A DNA stretch of 64,000 nucleotides from Chiayiivirga flava (GTDB lineage: Bacteria; Pseudomonadota; Gammaproteobacteria; Xanthomonadales; Xanthomonadaceae), in the NCBI RefSeq assembly GCF_014202825.1, contig NZ_JACHHP010000002.1:682001-746000 (forward strand), given 5' to 3'. The notes under the pieces are model-generated. The model was not told where the DNA came from. It ran no database searches and saw nothing but the letters and a program-made list of their open reading frames with translations. Shown here one piece after another: positions 57,759-64,000 of this stretch (positions within the stretch are counted from its first letter, which is position 1; each line of letters begins with the position of its first letter). Both the position numbers and the translations under genes were made by a program.

Positions 57759-58715
57759 ATGAAACCAATGCGTGCATCGACTCTCGGCATCACATTGCTT
57801 GCGTTCGCCTCGGCAGCCGCGTTCGCGAACGACGCGGTCGCCGTCGACGCGCGTGCACAGGTTCGGGAGTTTGCGATCTGGCCGGAAGGTTCGGCCATCC
57901 TGCGGCAAGGCATCGAGGCACTCGCCGGGCAAGAACATGCGATCACGCATCCTTCGCTGCTGGTCCATTCGCCGGCCGCCTCGTCGTCGCGCACGGCGGC
58001 GCTGGTGTTTCCCGGCGGCGGCTACAAGGCGGTCGCAGTCGGCCCGCACAGCACGCTCGGCCCGGACGGCGCGGATGTCTGCAAGTGGCTGACCGATGCC
58101 GGCGTCACCTGCGTGCTGTTGAAGTATCGCGTGCCCAATACCGGCTGCAACTGGAATCCCGTCACCCGCCGGCACGATGCGCCGGACGTGCCGATGGCAC
58201 TGCAGGACGCGCAACGCGCCATCTCGATGATTCGCCATCGCGCCGACGAACTGGACATCGACCCGCGCAGGATCGGCGTGATCGGCTTCTCGGCCGGCGG
58301 CAACCTGGCCGTGCTTTCGAGCACGGCCTTCGAGCACCGCGTCTACGCACCGATCGACGCAATCGACGCGGTCAGTTCTCGCCCCGACTTCGCGATTCCG
58401 GTGTATCCGGGCCACATGACGATGGAGCACAAGAACAAGCGGCCCAGAAACCTCGCGGCGCAGGAACTCAATACCGACATCGTGGTGTCGCCGCGCGTCC
58501 CGCCGACACTGCTGATCCACGCGAAGGACGATCCCGTCGATCCCGTGCACTATTCGCTGGTCTACGAACGCGAACTGAGGAAGGCCGGAGGCGATGTCAC
58601 GCTCAAGCTGTACGAAAACGGCGGGCATGCGTTCGGCGTCAGAAAACAGGGCACCGACTCGGACCGCTGGACCGACGACGCGCTGGCGTGGCTGAAGAAC
58701 ATCGGCATGCTCTGA
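57759..58715 (+). CDS. Secreted alpha/beta-hydrolase esterase
   Basis: 318 residues. Signal peptide 1-23 (LGITLLAFASAAAFAND). Oxyanion-hole motif FPGGGYKAV, nucleophile in VIGFSAGGNLAV, acid in LLIHAKDDPVDPVHY and catalytic His in YENGGHAFGVRKQGTDSD, all in the order of acetyl-xylan-esterase/endo-xylanase-type hydrolases (BD-FAE-like). Probably a periplasmic carbohydrate esterase; substrate not determined. Alone in its transcription unit. Confidence 0.88.
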   Translation: MKPMRASTLGITLLAFASAAAFANDAVAVDARAQVREFAIWPEGSAILRQGIEALAGQEHAITHPSLLVHSPAASSSRTAALVFPGGGYKAVAVGPHSTLGPDGADVCKWLTDAGVTCVLLKYRVPNTGCNWNPVTRRHDAPDVPMALQDAQRAISMIRHRADELDIDPRRIGVIGFSAGGNLAVLSSTAFEHRVYAPIDAIDAVSSRPDFAIPVYPGHMTMEHKNKRPRNLAAQELNTDIVVSPRVPPTLLIHAKDDPVDPVHYSLVYERELRKAGGDVTLKLYENGGHAFGVRKQGTDSDRWTDDALAWLKNIGML

Positions 58716-58890
58716 CCGCGACCGGCAGGCGTGGCTGCAGCCGGTCCTGACGTCGATTCGCACGCGCACGCGGCCCCCGCATCGGCTGGACGTCGACGCG
58801 GCACCCGCGTCAGGCGCCGCACACGCCGCTGCCGCAACCGGGCAGCCGACGCCGGAACCGCGTCGCCGGCGCGGACGCAGCGCGAAGACA

Positions 58891-59247
58891 TCAGGCGTCG
58901 CCCCACGTGCTGACACACACCTCGTGAAACTGCAGTTCTGGCCGAAGACCGGAATAGTTCGGGAGGTCGGCAGCCAGCAGGGCGCCCGCAGCCAACACCG
59001 CGGTCCTGGCCTGCGCGAGCGTGGAAAAATAGGCGTTCGACGTGGCAATCACCGCGCCCGCTGTCGGTGGACCATCGATCAGCGCGCGCGAGCACTCGAA
59101 GCGGATCATGCCCAGCGGTTGCAGCAGTTGTCCGGCAAGGCGCGCGTGTTCCGTGGTGTAGTAATCGTGATCGAACCAGGCGTCGGCGGCCCAGCGGTAG
59201 ATGCCGACGACCTTGACGCGCTTGATCGCACCGACGCCGGAAGACAT
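58891..59247 (-). CDS. EthD-domain protein
   Basis: 118 residues from MSSGVGAIKRVKVVGIYRWA. The pattern WFDHDYYTTEHARLAGQLLQPLG and the ferredoxin-like fold length fit EthD/dimeric alpha-beta barrel proteins. Function unknown; relatives degrade small organic molecules. Last gene with chromosomal base composition before the cassette array. Confidence 0.85.
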   Translation of the reverse strand: MSSGVGAIKRVKVVGIYRWAADAWFDHDYYTTEHARLAGQLLQPLGMIRFECSRALIDGPPTAGAVIATSNAYFSTLAQARTAVLAAGALLAADLPNYSGLRPELQFHEVCVSTWGDA

Positions 59248-59344
59248 GGCAGTGACCCGTGCTGTGGGAGGGGAGGCATGCCGGCACCGCGCCGCGAAGC
59301 GGCTGCGGCGCGGTTGAAATCCGACCGGCGTCTGCGCGACGACG

Positions 59345-59542
59345 TTACTGCGTCCCCGGCACGGGCGGGGTGTCCTCGATTGCGGATTGGATCGCCGACG
59401 AGAGATCGCTGCCGTCGGCCGCCATCGGCGCCGCGCGGGCGCACATGTCCGCCGCGGAACCACCGACCCATTGTTCGTACGGATCGGTCCGGACGGTGGC
59501 GAAGTCGGTCCATCCTTCCCGCGTTGCCCGAATCGATCTCAT
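59345..59542 (-). CDS. Short ORF after repeat B
   Basis: 65 residues beginning MRSIRATREGWTDFATVRTD. Its start lies at the end of repeat B, in the same place where the cassette ORF at 60479 starts after repeat A, so both begin MRS. No family recognised; it may be a remnant cassette fused to chromosomal DNA. Confidence 0.4.
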   Translation of the reverse strand: MRSIRATREGWTDFATVRTDPYEQWVGGSAADMCARAAPMAADGSDLSSAIQSAIEDTPPVPGTQ

Positions 59543-59688
59543 GCAAGCGTGTCGGTCCCCGGACCTGCCAAGCCGATAACTCTGATGGCGAGCTCCCGCC
59601 GATTGAGCGTGTGGCCCAGGTCCGCGGATTCCATGATGGCCCGAGCGATCACGCTCACCCCAAGGCCGAATAGACGACTGCAACCGCA
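59535..59688 (-). repeat. Repeat B (copy of a 150-bp array repeat)
   Basis: Direct repeat of the segment at 60852-61001 at roughly 70-80% identity. Shared words on the minus strand: GCGGTTGCA, TATTCGGC, CATCATGGAATCCGCG, GTTATCGGCTTGGC, GGGGACCGACACGCTTGCAT then GAGATC. It follows the stop of the cassette ORF at 59745 where an attC should be. Confidence 0.8.
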
Positions 59689-59744
59689 ACGACTTGCCAC
59701 GATTTAGACGGGATCAGTTAACAGAGGAGTCCATAGATGAACTT

Positions 59745-60392
59745 TCAGGTGCCCACGCGCTCACAGAGCTGGATCGCTTTCGGGCACTTGATGTCAATGA
59801 AGGGGCGCGGTGTTCCATCACAGAACCAAACCATTCTGTACTCCGACTCTGCTGCGAACCTCGCCTGCTTGATGAAGAACTTGTTCCTCATGTGGTTTCC
59901 TACGACGGAGTTTTGCCTTTCCATCCAGCGTTCAGGATCTTCTCCGTCCTCGGGCGGGGAGAAACTATGGTCATCTGTTGCCTCGTAGAACGTATTTTTA
60001 CGATAGATGCAAGGCCCTTCGGTTCCTCCAATGAACCCAGGTATCTGCCTAGCCAAAGTAGCCGAAAAGGCAAGCGTATCCTTTATTCTGATGCCCGCGT
60101 ATCCGTCGCCGGGGTGGACTTCCGTCATTGATCCACACAGTACGTATGCTTCTTGCCCATTGAAGGCGATTGCGGAGAGATTTGATTTTGGAGATACGAT
60201 CTTCATCGCGGCCTTCCCTTCTTCTGAGTCTCTCCGAGTCTCATCCGGATGCTTACAGAACGACTCAAACGAACTGAGTCGAAGTGAGCCGTCCTTGAAG
60301 AAGGCGTCCACGTACTCGCGATGCATTCGACGATCAACGACGGGCGTGCGAACTTCCCAATTATAGCCGATCGGAAGATTCAGAATTGACAT
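59745..60392 (-). CDS. Cassette ORF, DUF2971-like
   Basis: 215 residues; the ATG lies six bases after attC-g, as for a cassette gene. FFKDGSLRLSSFESFCKHPD, TRRDSEEGK and KFFIKQARFAAESEYRMVWF resemble DUF2971-type proteins, which have the same order of a LR.S.F..., R.D.EG and E.EYR motif. Lowest GC of the window. Its own attC is not visible; repeat B follows its stop. Confidence 0.6.
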   Translation of the reverse strand: MSILNLPIGYNWEVRTPVVDRRMHREYVDAFFKDGSLRLSSFESFCKHPDETRRDSEEGKAAMKIVSPKSNLSAIAFNGQEAYVLCGSMTEVHPGDGYAGIRIKDTLAFSATLARQIPGFIGGTEGPCIYRKNTFYEATDDHSFSPPEDGEDPERWMERQNSVVGNHMRNKFFIKQARFAAESEYRMVWFCDGTPRPFIDIKCPKAIQLCERVGT

Positions 60393-60397
60393 TGGCT

Positions 60398-60484
60398 ACC
60401 TAACGTCGAGTTAAGCCGCCGCGCACGACGGCGTTGGATGAATGCGACGAACTGTTCGCGGTCGGCTTAGAAACTTAGTTAGAC
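60398..60484 (-). other. attC site g (87 bp)
   Basis: Outer core sites GTTAGAC (60484-60478 side) and ACCTAAC (60398-60404) with inner TTAAGCCGCCGCGC and GCGGTCGGCTTAGA arms that pair. It supplies the TAA stop of the cassette ORF to its right (TTA at 60479-60481). Confidence 0.85.
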
Positions 60485-60859
60485 CTGTGAGGGCGAGCCA
60501 AACGGAACAAGCCGCTCGATAGGCGGCATTGTATCTGGAGTGCTTTGGCCGTCAATTGACCAGAGCTCGAGACCGCCCAACAGACCATCTTGCTCAAATA
60601 CAAACGCGCCACAAAGGTGGCCTTGCTCGGTACTCCATTGATAGTCGGAGAGAATGCGCACAGCGGGATCGGCCGGCCGCTTCCCGTTGATGGAAAAATC
60701 GATGCTGGCGCAACCACAACCGCAGCGCCCAGTAACACGGGCGAGTTGAAGCTGCTCCAGGAAAGCGGAATTGTCTCCGGTGCCGTGCGCAAGTAACCAG
60801 CGCACTACCGCGAGCTCATCAGGAGCTAGCGGACGGTCGATAGCCAGATTTGATCTCAT
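60479..60859 (-). CDS. Cassette ORF, Cys-rich-motif hypothetical family
   Basis: 126 residues from MRSNLAIDRPLAPDELAVVR; a longer frame upstream only reads through repeat A. It has VTGRCGCGCASIDFSINGK, a CxCxC motif I know from a widespread small family often found in cassette arrays and accessory regions, followed by FVFEQDGLLGGLELWSIDG. Function unknown. The stop TAA lies in attC-g. Confidence 0.7.
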   Translation of the reverse strand: MRSNLAIDRPLAPDELAVVRWLLAHGTGDNSAFLEQLQLARVTGRCGCGCASIDFSINGKRPADPAVRILSDYQWSTEQGHLCGAFVFEQDGLLGGLELWSIDGQSTPDTMPPIERLVPFGSPSQV

Positions 60860-61001
60860 GCAAGCGTGTCGGTCCCCGATGCAGCCAAGCCGATAACAAT
60901 GTTGGTCCACGCTACCGCTTGAACATATGGCCCTGCGTCGCGGATTCCATGATGGCTCGGGCTCGATGCCCAACAAAGCCGAATACACGAATGCAACCGC
61001 A
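60852..61001 (-). repeat. Repeat A (copy of a 150-bp array repeat)
   Basis: Direct repeat of 59535-59688. It fills the space between the stop of the membrane-protein ORF at 61082 and the start of the ORF at 60479 where no canonical attC is found. The last bases encode the initiating MRS of the next ORF. Confidence 0.8.
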
Positions 61002-61081
61002 CCGTCTTGGTGAGATCGAAACACACGCGTCAGCAGGAAGGGAGCAGAAACAGAATCAGGAACGATCAACCACAACTGCCG

Positions 61082-61378
61082 TCAGGGGTTGAGGGAGGAG
61101 TCCATGCATGAATTGTTCAGCGACACGACTAGCAGAATCAAGACGGCAAGTGTAGGCAGCAACCACCGTGAGGAAACCACCGCGATGGCGGCAACGGCGA
61201 GGAATCCTCTCAAGGCCTCAGGCCAGTGAGCGCAACCGGCTTCTAGCGTAAGCCACCCTGTGGCGCTACATCCAACGAATGGGCCGAAGTAGACAGGGAT
61301 GATGGATGCGGCAATGGCAAGTGCCGCGGCAGCTCCGCCTCTTGCGATCCAAAATGCTTGCGAGGTCGTGAACAACAA
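61082..61378 (-). CDS. Cassette ORF, small membrane protein
   Basis: 98 residues from a TTG directly beside attC-f (start uncertain). Two to three hydrophobic segments (AAAALAIAASIIPVYFGPFV, LRGFLAVAAIAVVSS, LLPTLAVLILLVVSL). No family recognised. No attC follows its stop; repeat A does, so this ORF and the next may be in one two-gene cassette between attC-f and attC-g. Confidence 0.6.
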   Translation of the reverse strand: MLFTTSQAFWIARGGAAAALAIAASIIPVYFGPFVGCSATGWLTLEAGCAHWPEALRGFLAVAAIAVVSSRWLLPTLAVLILLVVSLNNSCMDSSLNP

Positions 61379-61379
61379 C

Positions 61380-61465
61380 GTCTAACACCTAAGTTAAGCC
61401 GCCGCCCGAGAGCGTGCGGATAAAGCGAAGAACTCTCACCCGTCGGCTTGAACGCATAGTTAGAA
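61380..61465 (-). other. attC site f (86 bp)
   Basis: Core sites GTCTAAC and GTTAGAA. Inner arms TTAAGCCGCCGCCCGAGAG and CTCTCACCCGTCGGCTTGAA pair over most of their length. Nearly the same sequence as attC-e. It gives the TAA stop of the ankyrin cassette ORF. Confidence 0.93.
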
Positions 61466-61828
61466 CCCGTGCGCCACGAGCAAAGCGACGACGCGCTGGT
61501 GATTGAGAAACTCCGCAAGCTCCCGAGCAGTGTGCCCATTGTTGCAGCGCTGATTCCGGGCTCCAAGTCGAAGGAGCGTACCCACCGCCAGTTCTTGATC
61601 TTGCTCCGCCGCGCAGTGCAGAGGCGTGAAGCCATCTTCGCCTGGTTTATCGATTTCGGCCCCGCTTGCGACCAACACCTCAATCGCTTCTGCGTCTCCC
61701 CAGATTGAGACAACATGCAGGGGCGTCTCGCCAAATGCGGATACTACCGAGTGAACAGAATTCATCGGACCCGCGCCGGCAAGGTCCGCTCGTTCGACCT
61801 CCGCTAATACTTGCGCCAGGGACTTCAT
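61460..61828 (-). CDS. Cassette ORF, ankyrin-repeat protein
   Basis: 122 residues starting MKSLAQVLAEVERADLAGAG; the ATG is three bases after attC-e. Two to three ankyrin repeats: FGETPLHVVSIWGDAEAIEV, DGFTPLHCAAEQDQELAVGT, and a degenerate NGHTARELAEFLNHQRVVAL. Upstream in-frame codons read attC-e itself (YAFKPTAE...LGRRLNLGV) and are not real coding. Small ankyrin proteins are common cassette cargo; partner unknown. Confidence 0.85.
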   Translation of the reverse strand: MKSLAQVLAEVERADLAGAGPMNSVHSVVSAFGETPLHVVSIWGDAEAIEVLVASGAEIDKPGEDGFTPLHCAAEQDQELAVGTLLRLGARNQRCNNGHTARELAEFLNHQRVVALLVAHGF

Positions 61829-61830
61829 GG

Positions 61831-61916
61831 GTCTAACACCTAAGTTAAGCCGCCGCCCGAGAGGGTGCGGACGAAGCGAGCAACTCTCGGCGGTCGGCTT
61901 GAACGCATAGTTAGCC
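61831..61916 (-). other. attC site e (86 bp)
   Basis: Core sites GTCTAAC (61831) and GTTAGCC (61910). Inner arms TTAAGCCGCCGCCCGAGAG and CTCTCGGCGGTCGGCTTGAA pair. Close copy of attC-f. Confidence 0.93.
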
Positions 61917-61923
61917 CGCGCCC

Positions 61924-62157
61924 TCAACGAAGCCGCCGTGAGACGAACGGAAACAGGAAGAAGGCCACGCAGAGGACACCAAAGCCCACGACTGGAGCAG
62001 TGAGCCGCTCCACGAACCAGAATCCCACAAGCGGAAGTGAGACGAGCGCGACCGCGAACGCAAGCGCGAATGCGAGCGCGTAGGCTGCGAAGGCGCGCAC
62101 AAAAAAGTTCGGGCGAGCGGGAGGCTGCGTGTGCTGATTTTTCTCACCCGGTTGCAT
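61924..62157 (-). CDS. Cassette ORF, small membrane protein
   Basis: 77 residues from an ATG close to attC-d: MQPGEKNQHTQPPARPNFFV, then two membrane helices (YALAFALAFAVALVSLPLVG and TAPVVGFGVLCVAFFLFPFV) and a basic end SRRLR. Unknown function. Its stop is 8 bases from attC-e. Confidence 0.7.
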   Translation of the reverse strand: MQPGEKNQHTQPPARPNFFVRAFAAYALAFALAFAVALVSLPLVGFWFVERLTAPVVGFGVLCVAFFLFPFVSRRLR

Positions 62158-62162
62158 GCGCG

Positions 62163-62222
62163 GACTAACACCTGAGTTAAGCCGCGCCGCGAAGCGGCGT
62201 CGGCTTGAATGAATTGTTAGGC
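62163..62222 (-). other. attC site d (60 bp)
   Basis: Core sites GACTAAC and GTTAGGC. Inner GCCGCGCCGCGAAGCGGCGT forms a hairpin; flanking TTAAGCC/GGCTTGAA arms pair. Almost identical to attC-a and attC-c. Confidence 0.93.
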
Positions 62223-62235
62223 AGCGCCCGCATGA

Positions 62236-62508
62236 CTACATGCAAATAGAACAACGGGTCAGCGACCGATCAAGCTTGGTTTGTGAATATTGCTCCAGGG
62301 CGGCAAGATCAGTGCTACAGAACTTGATGTAGTCGCCGGTTGTGAAGTTGCCAATCTTGGCGCTGGACATTGAGCCATGAGTCGCTGCATGGACCATGGG
62401 GTATTTCGGCATTCTCACAGCGCGATCAACGTTTGCGACGAAGCCGTGCGGGTTGGCCTGAACCCACTTGAGGTATCTCGTCTCGTCATTGTCAAACAGC
62501 TCGACCAT
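62236..62508 (-). CDS. Cassette ORF, conserved cassette-borne hypothetical protein
   Basis: 90 residues: MVELFDNDETRYLKWVQANP then HGFVANVDRAVRMPKYPMVH. GGAGAG lies just upstream, giving two adjacent ATGs (62511 and 62508); I chose the second for spacing. The RYLKWVQANPHGFV pattern recurs in integron and accessory-region proteins. Cys residues near the end (RCSIC) may bind metal. Function unknown. Confidence 0.8.
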   Translation of the reverse strand: MVELFDNDETRYLKWVQANPHGFVANVDRAVRMPKYPMVHAATHGSMSSAKIGNFTTGDYIKFCSTDLAALEQYSQTKLDRSLTRCSICM

Positions 62509-62541
62509 CATTCTCTCCGGTTGCCTGCGCGGTTGATAACG

Positions 62542-62601
62542 GCCTAACACCTGAGTTAAGCCGCGCCGCGAAGCGGCGTCGGCTTGGACGAACTGTTAGG
62601 G
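62542..62601 (-). other. attC site c (60 bp)
   Basis: Core sites GCCTAAC and GTTAGGG with the same inner hairpin as attC-a and attC-d. The cassette ORF to its right reads into this site and stops at 62556. Confidence 0.93.
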
Positions 62602-63056
62602 CTCATGCCGCGTACGGCACAAAACGCAGCAGCTGCGACGAGCCCACAAACCCCGAAGGATGCCGCTCCGCCCATGTATTGGAGCCAGCCTGCCACAGTG
62701 GGCACGCCATTCACCATGGTCTCGACGCCGTTTGACGAGGCGTAGGAGCCTGGGCTGGCGTAGCGCAGCGGCCAAGTGATCACCGCGGCAGGCAAGGCCC
62801 CCAGCACGAAGCCCGCGAGTAGAGCACTCCACCACCGGAGTAGGCCGCGCCAGCGCATGAGGAAGTAGGCCGGGATGCCGAGCACAACCACATGGGCTGC
62901 CGAGATGGCTAAGCAGATGGACAGGAAGCTGCGGGTGCGTACCCAGATATAAGGATCATTCGACTCAAAGGTGGCGAACTGGCCGTAGAGGTACCAAGCC
63001 CCGAGTGCCAGCGTCGGCGCAAGAACCGCTGCTCCGAACGCGATGATGAGTCTCAT
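62556..63056 (-). CDS. Cassette ORF, four-helix membrane protein ending in attC
   Basis: 166 residues from MRLIIAFGAAVLAPTLALGA. Four hydrophobic segments (about 3-24, 44-68, 73-97, 125-148). The last 15 or so residues (MSPNSSSKPTPLRGAA) are translated from attC-c itself and stop inside it. Unknown function. Confidence 0.75.
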   Translation of the reverse strand: MRLIIAFGAAVLAPTLALGAWYLYGQFATFESNDPYIWVRTRSFLSICLAISAAHVVVLGIPAYFLMRWRGLLRWWSALLAGFVLGALPAAVITWPLRYASPGSYASSNGVETMVNGVPTVAGWLQYMGGAASFGVCGLVAAAAFCAVRGMSPNSSSKPTPLRGAA

Positions 63057-63059
63057 GAG

Positions 63060-63148
63060 CCCTAACGCCGTGTTAAGCCGCTGCCGGCCGGCAGCAGTCG
63101 CTTGAGCCTAATGTACATCCGGCAGTCGGCTTGAACACCTAGTTAGGA
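63060..63148 (-). other. attC site b (89 bp)
   Basis: Core sites CCCTAAC (63060) and GTTAGGA (63142). Inner arms TTAAGCCGCTGCCGGC and CCGGCAGTCGGCTTGAA pair around a longer loop. A singleton in this window. Confidence 0.88.
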
Positions 63149-63157
63149 GGCTGTTGC

Positions 63158-63571
63158 TTAGCCGGGGTCGCAAGCGGGCGGAGCAGTGCCAAGCTCCCTT
63201 TGAATTGTCACCCACGTGGTACCGAAGAACTCTTGCGAGGATTGATCGCCAGAAGCCTCGCGGCGGAGCGCGGCTGCGCGCTCCGGGGCCAACGACAGCT
63301 CATACGATGCGCCCACTCTGCGCCAAGCGGACGAATCGTCAGGGATCTCCGCGTGCAGCACAACCAGCTTGGCGCCGCAAAGCTCGGCGGGCGCAAGCAC
63401 CTGAAAGGTCGTTGCGTGATGGGCCTCATAGGAGCCATCGGAGTAGTGCGACCAATTGGCACTCTCCGCGAAATCTATCAGCGTTGCCTGGACCAGGAGT
63501 GGCCGATCCGCAGGTGTGGAGGCGCACGACGTGAGCAGAATAGTGAGAATGCCGAGAAGCCGCGCTAGCAC
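63158..63571 (-). CDS. Cassette ORF, lipoprotein
   Basis: 137 residues from a GTG close to attC-a. MLARLLGILTILLTSCASTP is a lipoprotein signal with lipobox LTSC. The mature part (ADRPLLVQATLIDFAESANW...) has no recognised domain. Likely anchored in the outer or inner membrane leaflet. Stop at 63158, ten bases before attC-b. Confidence 0.8.
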   Translation of the reverse strand: MLARLLGILTILLTSCASTPADRPLLVQATLIDFAESANWSHYSDGSYEAHHATTFQVLAPAELCGAKLVVLHAEIPDDSSAWRRVGASYELSLAPERAAALRREASGDQSSQEFFGTTWVTIQRELGTAPPACDPG

Positions 63572-63582
63572 TGGTAACAGCC

Positions 63583-63642
63583 TCCTAACACCTGAATTAA
63601 ACCGCGCCGCGAAGCGGCGTCGGCTTGAATGAATTGTTAGCC
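63583..63642 (-). other. attC site a (60 bp)
   Basis: Core sites TCCTAAC (63583) and GTTAGCC (63636) with the GCCGCGAAGCGGC hairpin core. It supplies the TAA stop (63637-63639) of the rightmost cassette ORF. Confidence 0.93.
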
Positions 63643-64000
63643 GTCAACTCCAAGTACCCGCAGTGATCGGCAAATGCGCTCGACACCCTTATAGCCAGTC
63701 TTGTAGCCGGCTCCGATCCCTACTATGGCTTTTTCCAGCAATTGACGGTGCTCCTTTGCGATGCGGTAGTTCGGAACGTTAAGCAGCACGTAAAACTCAT
63801 CCATTTCCGCTAAATCAAGCTCGAACGCTAATGTCCTTGACTGTTGTTTCGTCAGGGTCCCACTTGACCAACCGGAGAAAAAATCTCTCCACCAACTTAG
63901 CTCAGATTCTCTAACCGGCGGGTCGGTAGTCAGATACACGCCATGAGGAATTTGATGTTTCGCTTTTAGCTTTGCTTTGACTTGCTCTAGTTCGTCGGAT
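63637..64000 (-). CDS. Cassette ORF, partial at the right edge
   Basis: The frame is open to the window edge. About 120 residues are visible: DELEQVKAKLKAKHQIPHGV, then YLTTDPPVRESELSWWRDFF and YRIAKEHRQLLEKAIVGIGA. A GTG at 63939 could start a 100-residue protein, but the upstream residues look coding (Lys/Glu-rich helix), so the gene probably begins outside. No family recognised. Confidence 0.6.
   Translation of the reverse strand, partial: SDELEQVKAKLKAKHQIPHGVYLTTDPPVRESELSWWRDFFSGWSSGTLTKQQSRTLAFELDLAEMDEFYVLLNVPNYRIAKEHRQLLEKAIVGIGAGYKTGYKGVERICRSLRVLGVDG

What the first reader, a model, noticed from the sequence alone, without database searches (positions are those of the whole stretch)
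59535..61001. 150-bp direct repeat standing in for attC sites
Repeats A (60852-61001) and B (59535-59688) both follow a cassette ORF stop and both end in the initiator ATGAGATC of the next ORF, while no canonical attC is found at those junctions. The pair brackets two cassette ORFs and one attC. It could be a mobile repeat that replaced attC, an unrecognised attC class (it keeps GTTATCGGCTTGG, like the L'/R' half), or a leader that carries a promoter and start codon.
Basis: partly seen in the sequence, partly recalled or inferred. Interest (0 to 1): 0.6.

Follow-up and report, generated by a model that had tools for sequence, protein, structure and literature searches.

The report
Transposase-less IS1111 ends in attC sites
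The two 150-base repeats are leftover right ends of a known kind of jumping gene that homes in on integron attC sites with a guide RNA; the guide-RNA end stayed behind and the transposase gene was lost, so this is an ordinary, now explained, scar.

Summary
Repeats A and B are real: 78% identical, the only two copies in the genome. They are neither attC sites nor cassette leaders. Each is the non-coding right end (RE) of an IS1111-attC insertion sequence, the part that encodes the attC-seeking seekRNA/bridge RNA, without its transposase. In relatives, transposase sequence (whole or fragment) lies 43-100 nt upstream of this RE in 29 of 41 copies classified. A covariance model built without A and B finds both full length (129 and 134 bits; next window hit 12) and finds ISPa25, a known attC-targeting IS1111 element, at 147.5 bits. 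Each RE ends in the inverted repeat (A 13/13, B 11/13 bases) and abuts a decayed attC half. So the missing attC was split by an insertion; deletions then took its other half, the left end, the transposase and the start of the next cassette. The ATGAGATC 'initiator' is IS sequence read antisense. The ORF after A is a nearly whole cassette gene; that after B keeps about 55 of 140 residues. The kind is known; the modest new point is guide-RNA regions that persist in a genome where no complete transposase was found.

The parts
60843..61105 (+). Remnant A: right end of an IS1111-attC insertion sequence (short spacer, guide-RNA region, distal end, subterminal inverted repeat); transposase and left end missing. 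The lower boundary is approximate.
   Evidence: R1 match
60861..61003 (+). A: seekRNA/bridge-RNA region (model R1 match, 129.3 bits, E 5.9e-32)
60895..60900 (+). A: guide AACAAT, complementary to ATTGTT of the adjacent attC half (6/6)
60917..60924 (+). A: second guide strand GCTTGAAC, matching attC GGCTTGAAT (the other strand of the target)
   Evidence: Read; order as described in PMC11187229
60877..60884 (+). A: 5' arm of covarying helix H1 (pairs with 60933-60940)
60933..60940 (+). A: 3' arm of helix H1
61093..61105 (-). A: subterminal inverted repeat ATGGACTCCTCCC (13/13)
61108..61121 (.). A: surviving attC half ATGAATTGTTCAGC with altered core (GTTCAGC for GTTAGGC)
59513..59734 (+). Remnant B: right end of a second, different IS1111-attC element, transposase and left end missing. 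The lower boundary is approximate.
59544..59690 (+). B: seekRNA/bridge-RNA region (model R1 match, 133.5 bits, E 4.6e-33)
59578..59583 (+). B: guide position AACTCT; does not match its own decayed attC half (3/6)
59722..59734 (-). B: subterminal inverted repeat ATGGACTCCTCTG (11/13)
59736..59749 (.). B: decayed attC half GATGAACTTTCAGG
60479..60859 (-). Cassette ORF after A (126 aa); about its first 15-25 nt and the attC left half before it are lost; ATG supplied by the IS spacer
59345..59542 (-). 5'-truncated cassette gene after B (65-aa frame, about 55 residues of it homologous; relatives ~140 aa in L081 and L082)
61082..61378 (-). Cassette ORF before A (98 aa); its last codons and stop lie in the attC half and IS end
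59745..60392 (-). Cassette ORF before B (215 aa); ends in the attC half
60400..60483 (.). Complete attC between A and B
61382..61464 (.). Complete attC on the intI side of A

Best explanation
A and B are remnants of two different IS1111-attC insertion sequences. Each element once inserted, in fixed orientation, into the attC site of an integron cassette and so split that attC in two. The transposase was guided by an RNA made from the element's long non-coding right end: in A one guide strand (AACAAT) pairs with ATTGTT and the other (GCTTGAA) corresponds to the other attC strand. Later deletions removed the left half of each attC, the left end, the transposase gene and the first bases (A) or the first ~85-90 codons (B) of the next cassette. 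The structured guide-RNA region, the right-hand inverted repeat and the right half of attC remain. Shown: homology to the RE of intact elements, the inverted repeat, the half-sites, the conserved helices, and no detectable transposase or left end here. Inferred: that A and B were once complete elements in this lineage, and the deletion events. Not shown: that A or B are transcribed or can still act.
For: Transposase coding sequence lies 43-100 nt upstream on the same strand in 29 of 41 RE copies of at least 75 bits (41 of the 42 such hits were classified). The 29 include fragments of 17 residues upward; 18 of 41 cover nearly the whole transposase. Of the 12 copies without it, 3 are cut by contig ends and 9, A and B among them, have none detectable at E 0.01. 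The transposase has Pfam PF02371 and PF01548. Intact elements sit in attC: left half ...CGGCTTGAATGAT, then ATGGACTCCTCCC, and GGAGTCCATACATGAATTGTTAGGC on the right. An attC core [AG]TTAG follows the right end in 34 of the 39 copies whose right end was found. Model R1, built from 19 relatives without A and B, scores A 129.3 and B 133.5 bits, like the intact element of G022 (128.8, itself in the training set). R1 scores ISPa25, not in the training set, 147.5 bits; ISPa25's transposase is 61.7% identical to that of G087 and its RE is 77.9% identical to A. Helix H1 covaries: 127 of 129 cells paired, and at least two Watson-Crick pair types at 6 of 7 positions; A and B each keep 8 pairs with different letters. 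In two of seven relatives of the ORF after A the gene starts right after a complete attC (L073, L074). In print, the IS1111 seekRNA comes from the region downstream of tnp, and ISKpn4, ISPst6 and ISPa25 target attC (PMC11187229, abstract and passages).
Against: There is no left end and no transposase at A or B, so neither insertion can be shown from both sides. Both attC halves are decayed (GTTCAGC, TTTCAGG), and B's guide matches its flank at only 3 of 6 positions. The guide-target fit is good but uneven: 20 of 37 copies are 6/6, 11 are 5/6, 4 are 4/6 and 2 (B and G027) are 3/6; guides and targets are both conserved, and no independent control was run. The H1 arms were chosen row by row as the best ungapped helix, which inflates the share of paired cells. 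With up to 3 mismatches the inverted-repeat pattern is no commoner in the window than chance (13 found, 12.0 expected); only A (0) and B (2) have fewer than 3 mismatches. The spacer is too divergent to place the deletion points to the base. Five of seven relatives of the ORF after A were not seen directly after a complete attC. No expression data.
Confidence: 0.96

Rival explanations
1. An unrecognised class of attC site: the 150 bp fold as single-stranded DNA and are cut by the integron integrase.
Against: Transposase sequence of an insertion sequence precedes it in 29 of 41 copies, with a separate attC half outside it (34 of 39). The resemblance comes from the RNA guide, which is complementary to attC.
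Confidence: 0.01
2. Non-autonomous mobile units (miniature IS) moved in trans by a transposase elsewhere.
For: Internal-deletion derivatives that keep both ends are seen in relatives (G348, G066 and G310).
Against: A and B have no left end, and the genome shows only a 156-aa IS110-type fragment that matches PF02371 and nothing that matches PF01548. The assembly is a 12-contig draft.
Confidence: 0.02
3. Co-opted leader: the RE end now serves as start-codon (and perhaps promoter) region of the following cassette gene.
For: The ATG of the ORF after A lies in the element and is in frame with the cassette protein.
Against: No promoter-like match in A or B. Three relatives (L073, L074, L077) have their own start GTGAGCCA[CT]ACTCC in place of it. 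The ORF after B is a broken gene.
Confidence: 0.04

Closest known systems
ISPa25 (IS1111 family, attC-targeting)
   Same: RE 77.9% identical to A over 135 nt; R1 match 147.5 bits; ends in GGAGGAGTCCATA followed by an attC half CGACTTGTTAGCC
   Different: ISPa25 has its transposase; A and B have neither transposase nor left end
IS1111-attC group (ISKpn4, ISPst6; Tetu and Holmes 2008, Post and Hall 2009, both known here only from reference lists and recall)
   Same: Insertion in one end of attC; guide RNA downstream of tnp with the top-strand complement before the bottom-strand match; subterminal inverted repeats (PMC11187229, passages)
   Different: Only the right end is left here
IS110-family bridge RNA (Durrant et al. 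2024, PMC11208160, passages)
   Same: Structured RNA in the non-coding end with a target loop; in the RE for the IS1111 group
   Different: The donor loop was not worked out here; no recombinase present

Membership tests
IS1111-attC insertion sequences (as remnant) | Long non-coding region downstream of tnp that encodes a structured guide RNA | tested here: met
   R1 hits to A and B; helix covariation (structure only; transcription not tested)
IS1111-attC insertion sequences (as remnant) | Subterminal inverted repeats at both ends | tested here: inconclusive
   Right repeat present (A 13/13, B 11/13); no left repeat at either
IS1111-attC insertion sequences (as remnant) | Insertion at one end of attC in fixed orientation | tested here: met
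   Right attC half abuts A and, more decayed, B; left half missing
IS1111-attC insertion sequences (as remnant) | DEDD transposase (PF01548 and PF02371) | tested here: not met
   None near A or B; met in the G087 relative. So these are remnants, not complete members
IS1111-attC insertion sequences (as remnant) | Guide complementary to both target strands | tested here: met
   A: AACAAT 6/6 and GCTTGAAC (by eye). B: 3/6 only, so not met for B
Integron attC site | Paired core sites (GTTRRRY and its complement) flanking an imperfect palindrome | tested here: not met
   The regex for attC finds none at A or B; only a half-site lies outside each repeat
Seek/bridge RNA | Transcribed and bound by transposase | not testable with these tools
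   Needs RNA sequencing or co-purification

The most novel reading that the evidence does not exclude
A is a retained orphan guide RNA: its fold and attC-matching guide were kept after the transposase was lost because the RNA still does something at attC sites, for example by pairing with attC DNA or with attC-bearing cassette transcripts, or by serving a transposase that arrives later.
Probability: 0.04. Interest if true: 0.6.

Novelty: new member of a known kind. Interest (0 to 1): 0.2.

Why it matters
It accounts for cassette junctions that lack attC: attC-seeking insertion sequences split the site, and deletions then fuse neighbouring cassettes into one unit with a single attC. It also shows that attC-programmed guide-RNA regions can be left without their transposase: 9 of the 38 RE copies not cut next to the RE by a contig end have no detectable transposase sequence within the stretch examined, up to 1.8 kb upstream. 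Model R1 gives a simple way to recognise such scars in integron arrays, where they could otherwise pass for unknown repeats or odd attC sites.

Tried and rejected
Rfam (E up to 5) gave four hits in 58500-64000, all far below their gathering scores and none at A or B. For a while I thought that A and B were truncated at the same point (GATCTCATG). Comparison with the spacers of G167, G183 and others suggests that this is only where the fast-changing spacers of A and B stop being alike: the spacer of B resembles those of G167 and G183 for about 30 nt more, by eye, and the multiple alignment is too gappy to fix either boundary. I dropped the idea of a shared deletion hot spot. RNAalifold on the plain MAFFT alignment missed helix H1 because of single-base gaps; the arms were then compared row by row. 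Single-sequence folding is only weakly informative (z -1.23 for A, -2.60 for B, -1.10 and -1.09 for two relatives). The promoter and terminator scan gave nothing above chance. A relaxed attC search with a palindrome test found only one site and was worse than the plain one, so array limits rest. The 22 rows below 75 bits were not classified, and one row above it (G214:C12, cut by a contig end) was left out, hence 41 of 42.

The searches for 'IS110 + bridge RNA + remnant' and 'seekRNA + non-autonomous' found no paper in the open-access library. Subscription papers are mostly not held there, so this is no proof that such remnants are undescribed.

Full report
What was claimed.

Is it there? Yes. 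A (60852-61001) and B (59535-59688) align at 78% identity, and they are the only two copies in the genome (4,067,001 bases, 12 contigs). The surroundings are a real cassette array on the minus strand: seven complete attC sites lie at window 60400-63641 (regex). An integron integrase gene (TIGR02249, 473.7 bits) lies at C2:791325-792263, about 50 kb from B. A and B are therefore in the part of the array furthest from the integrase.

What is it? A search of 395 genomes of the same family, own genome included, with B found matches in 23 (two candidates scored per genome). Ten of these genomes searched again with all candidates scored had 1 to 9 matches each at E 0.01 (two of the nine in G087 are pieces of one copy). 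In G087 the repeat follows directly on a 364-aa protein with Pfam domains PF02371 (E 2.7e-23) and PF01548 (E 2.6e-13), that is, an IS110/IS1111-type transposase. Reading the edges of elements in relatives gave the anatomy: attC left part ...CGGCTTGAATGAT, then ATGGACTCCTCCC (left subterminal repeat), transposase, a spacer, our repeat, GGGAGGAGTCCAT (right subterminal repeat), then ACATGAATTGTTAGGC, the other part of attC. This is the anatomy of the IS1111-attC group.

A broader test. I built a covariance model (R1, 147 positions) from 19 relatives, leaving A and B out. R1 finds B at 133.5 bits and A at 129.3 bits, both full length; the next hit in the window has 12.3 bits. It finds matches in 34 of 395 family genomes, own included (seven candidates scored per genome). 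I classified 41 of the 42 hits of 75 bits or more. In 29 of 41, transposase coding sequence lies 43-100 nt upstream on the same strand; 18 of 41 cover nearly the whole transposase, the others are fragments down to 17 residues. In 12 of 41 none was detected at E 0.01: 3 are cut by contig ends, and 9 (including A and B) are not. Some of the nine may hold traces too short to detect; G183 looks, by eye, as if it kept the last codons. In G075:C13, also by eye, other coding sequence, possibly another insertion sequence, stands upstream instead. The right end was found in 39 of 41, and an attC core [AG]TTAG follows it within 34 nt in 34 of 39; about 0.06 per copy would be expected at uniform base composition. 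The five exceptions are A, B, G075:C13, G116:320485 and G239:C35, all with altered versions of the same motif.

A named relative. R1 scores it 147.5 bits. Siddiquee et al. 2024 (PMC11187229; abstract and passages read) report that IS1111 elements make a seekRNA from the region downstream of tnp, that ISKpn4 and ISPst6 target one end of attC, and that ISPa25 targets the same site with a predicted seekRNA of very similar fold. [quoted passage not shown] Durrant et al. 2024 (PMC11208160; passages) place the IS1111 bridge RNA in the right end.

The RNA. The order in A is the published one: AACAAT (complement of the attC top strand ATTGTT), then GCTTGAAC (attC GGCTTGAAT). Of 37 copies where both guide and flank could be read, 20 pair at 6 of 6 positions, 11 at 5, 4 at 4 and 2 (B and G027) at 3. 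Of nine copies with guide AACTAT, two lie next to ATAGTT (one in G087, one in G033), one next to GTAGTT and six, all in G087, next to ATTGTT (5/6), so the fit is not strict. The basal helix H1 is kept by compensatory changes: among 19 distinct rows 127 of 129 cells are paired, and six of seven positions have at least two Watson-Crick pair types. The arms were picked row by row as the best ungapped helix, so the share of paired cells is inflated; the variety of pair types is the stronger point. A (CGATGCAG/CTGCGTCG) and B (CGGACCTG/CAGGTCCG) both keep the helix with different letters. Their bit scores equal that of an intact element (G022, 128.8, in the training set). So the RNA part of A and B shows no clear decay by this measure, whereas both attC halves are altered.

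What was lost. The window has no detectable transposase and no left end near A or B. For A, two of the seven relatives of the next ORF, in Luteimonas arsenica (L073) and a Lysobacterales MAG (L074), start with GTG 2 nt after the core of a complete attC (GTTAGGC-CC-GTGAGCCA...). L077 has the same start without a recognisable attC before it, and the other four relatives showed no attC directly before the gene. In the window the attC left part and about the first 15-25 nt of the cassette are gone, and an ATG from the antisense strand of the IS spacer stands in frame in front. For B, two relatives (L081 of G159, L082 of G277) are proteins of about 140 aa, and they and L083 (G036) have some 85-90 residues before the part that the window keeps, its last ~55, so the ORF after B is a broken gene. 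The deletion edges can be placed only roughly because the spacer is poorly conserved.

Consequence. Because the attC between the 98-aa ORF and the 126-aa ORF is broken, the two ORFs should now move, if at all, as one two-gene cassette bounded by the attC sites at 61382-61464 and 60400-60483. This is inference. The genome has no other match to R1 above noise (16.6 bits, E 0.61), no match to PF01548, and one IS110-type fragment of 156 aa elsewhere, so no complete transposase was found in this 12-contig assembly that could move A or B.

Verdict. This is an ordinary mobile-element scar, well explained by a known kind of element. I rate the interest low (0.2). The remaining open point is whether such orphan guide RNAs are made and do anything.

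Noticed in passing
G000:C2:741001-801000 (window 59001 onward and beyond its end): The array is in two low-GC pieces (0.57-0.59 GC; C2:741-746 kb and 786-792 kb, the second next to intI) with about 40 kb of 0.67-0.73 GC DNA between them in which the attC regex found none. The distal piece may be detached from its integrase.
   Followed up: partly
L081 (G159:C3), downstream of the relative of the ORF after B: By eye, an attC that holds only a ~90-bp stub of an IS1111 right end, an even shorter scar than A and B.
   Followed up: no
L020 (G348), L026 (G066), L017 (G310): Internal-deletion derivatives that keep a left end and a right end with part or none of the transposase; possible miniature elements movable in trans.
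   Followed up: no
L016/L130 (G389:C17:64072): A transposase-less RE preceded by what looks, by eye, like the first ~35 nt of another RE (GGTCCCCGGACCTGC, as in B), suggesting recombination between right ends.
   Followed up: no
L054 (G087:C6): One array stretch with five IS1111-attC right ends 2-3 kb apart, each followed by an attC core; some of the transposases are frameshifted.
   Followed up: partly
G087 elements (L054, L055): Guide AACTAT next to ATTGTT in six copies and next to ATAGTT in one: one element type seems to use two attC variants with a single mismatch.
   Followed up: no
window 61460-61927 (-): Cassette ORF with ankyrin repeats (PF12796, E 1.9e-15).
   Followed up: no
G000:C2:581947-582195 (L067): A 156-aa fragment that matches the IS110-type transposase domain PF02371; a neighbouring ORF ends in NNSSKPTPLRGAP, like ORFs here that read into an attC.
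   Followed up: no
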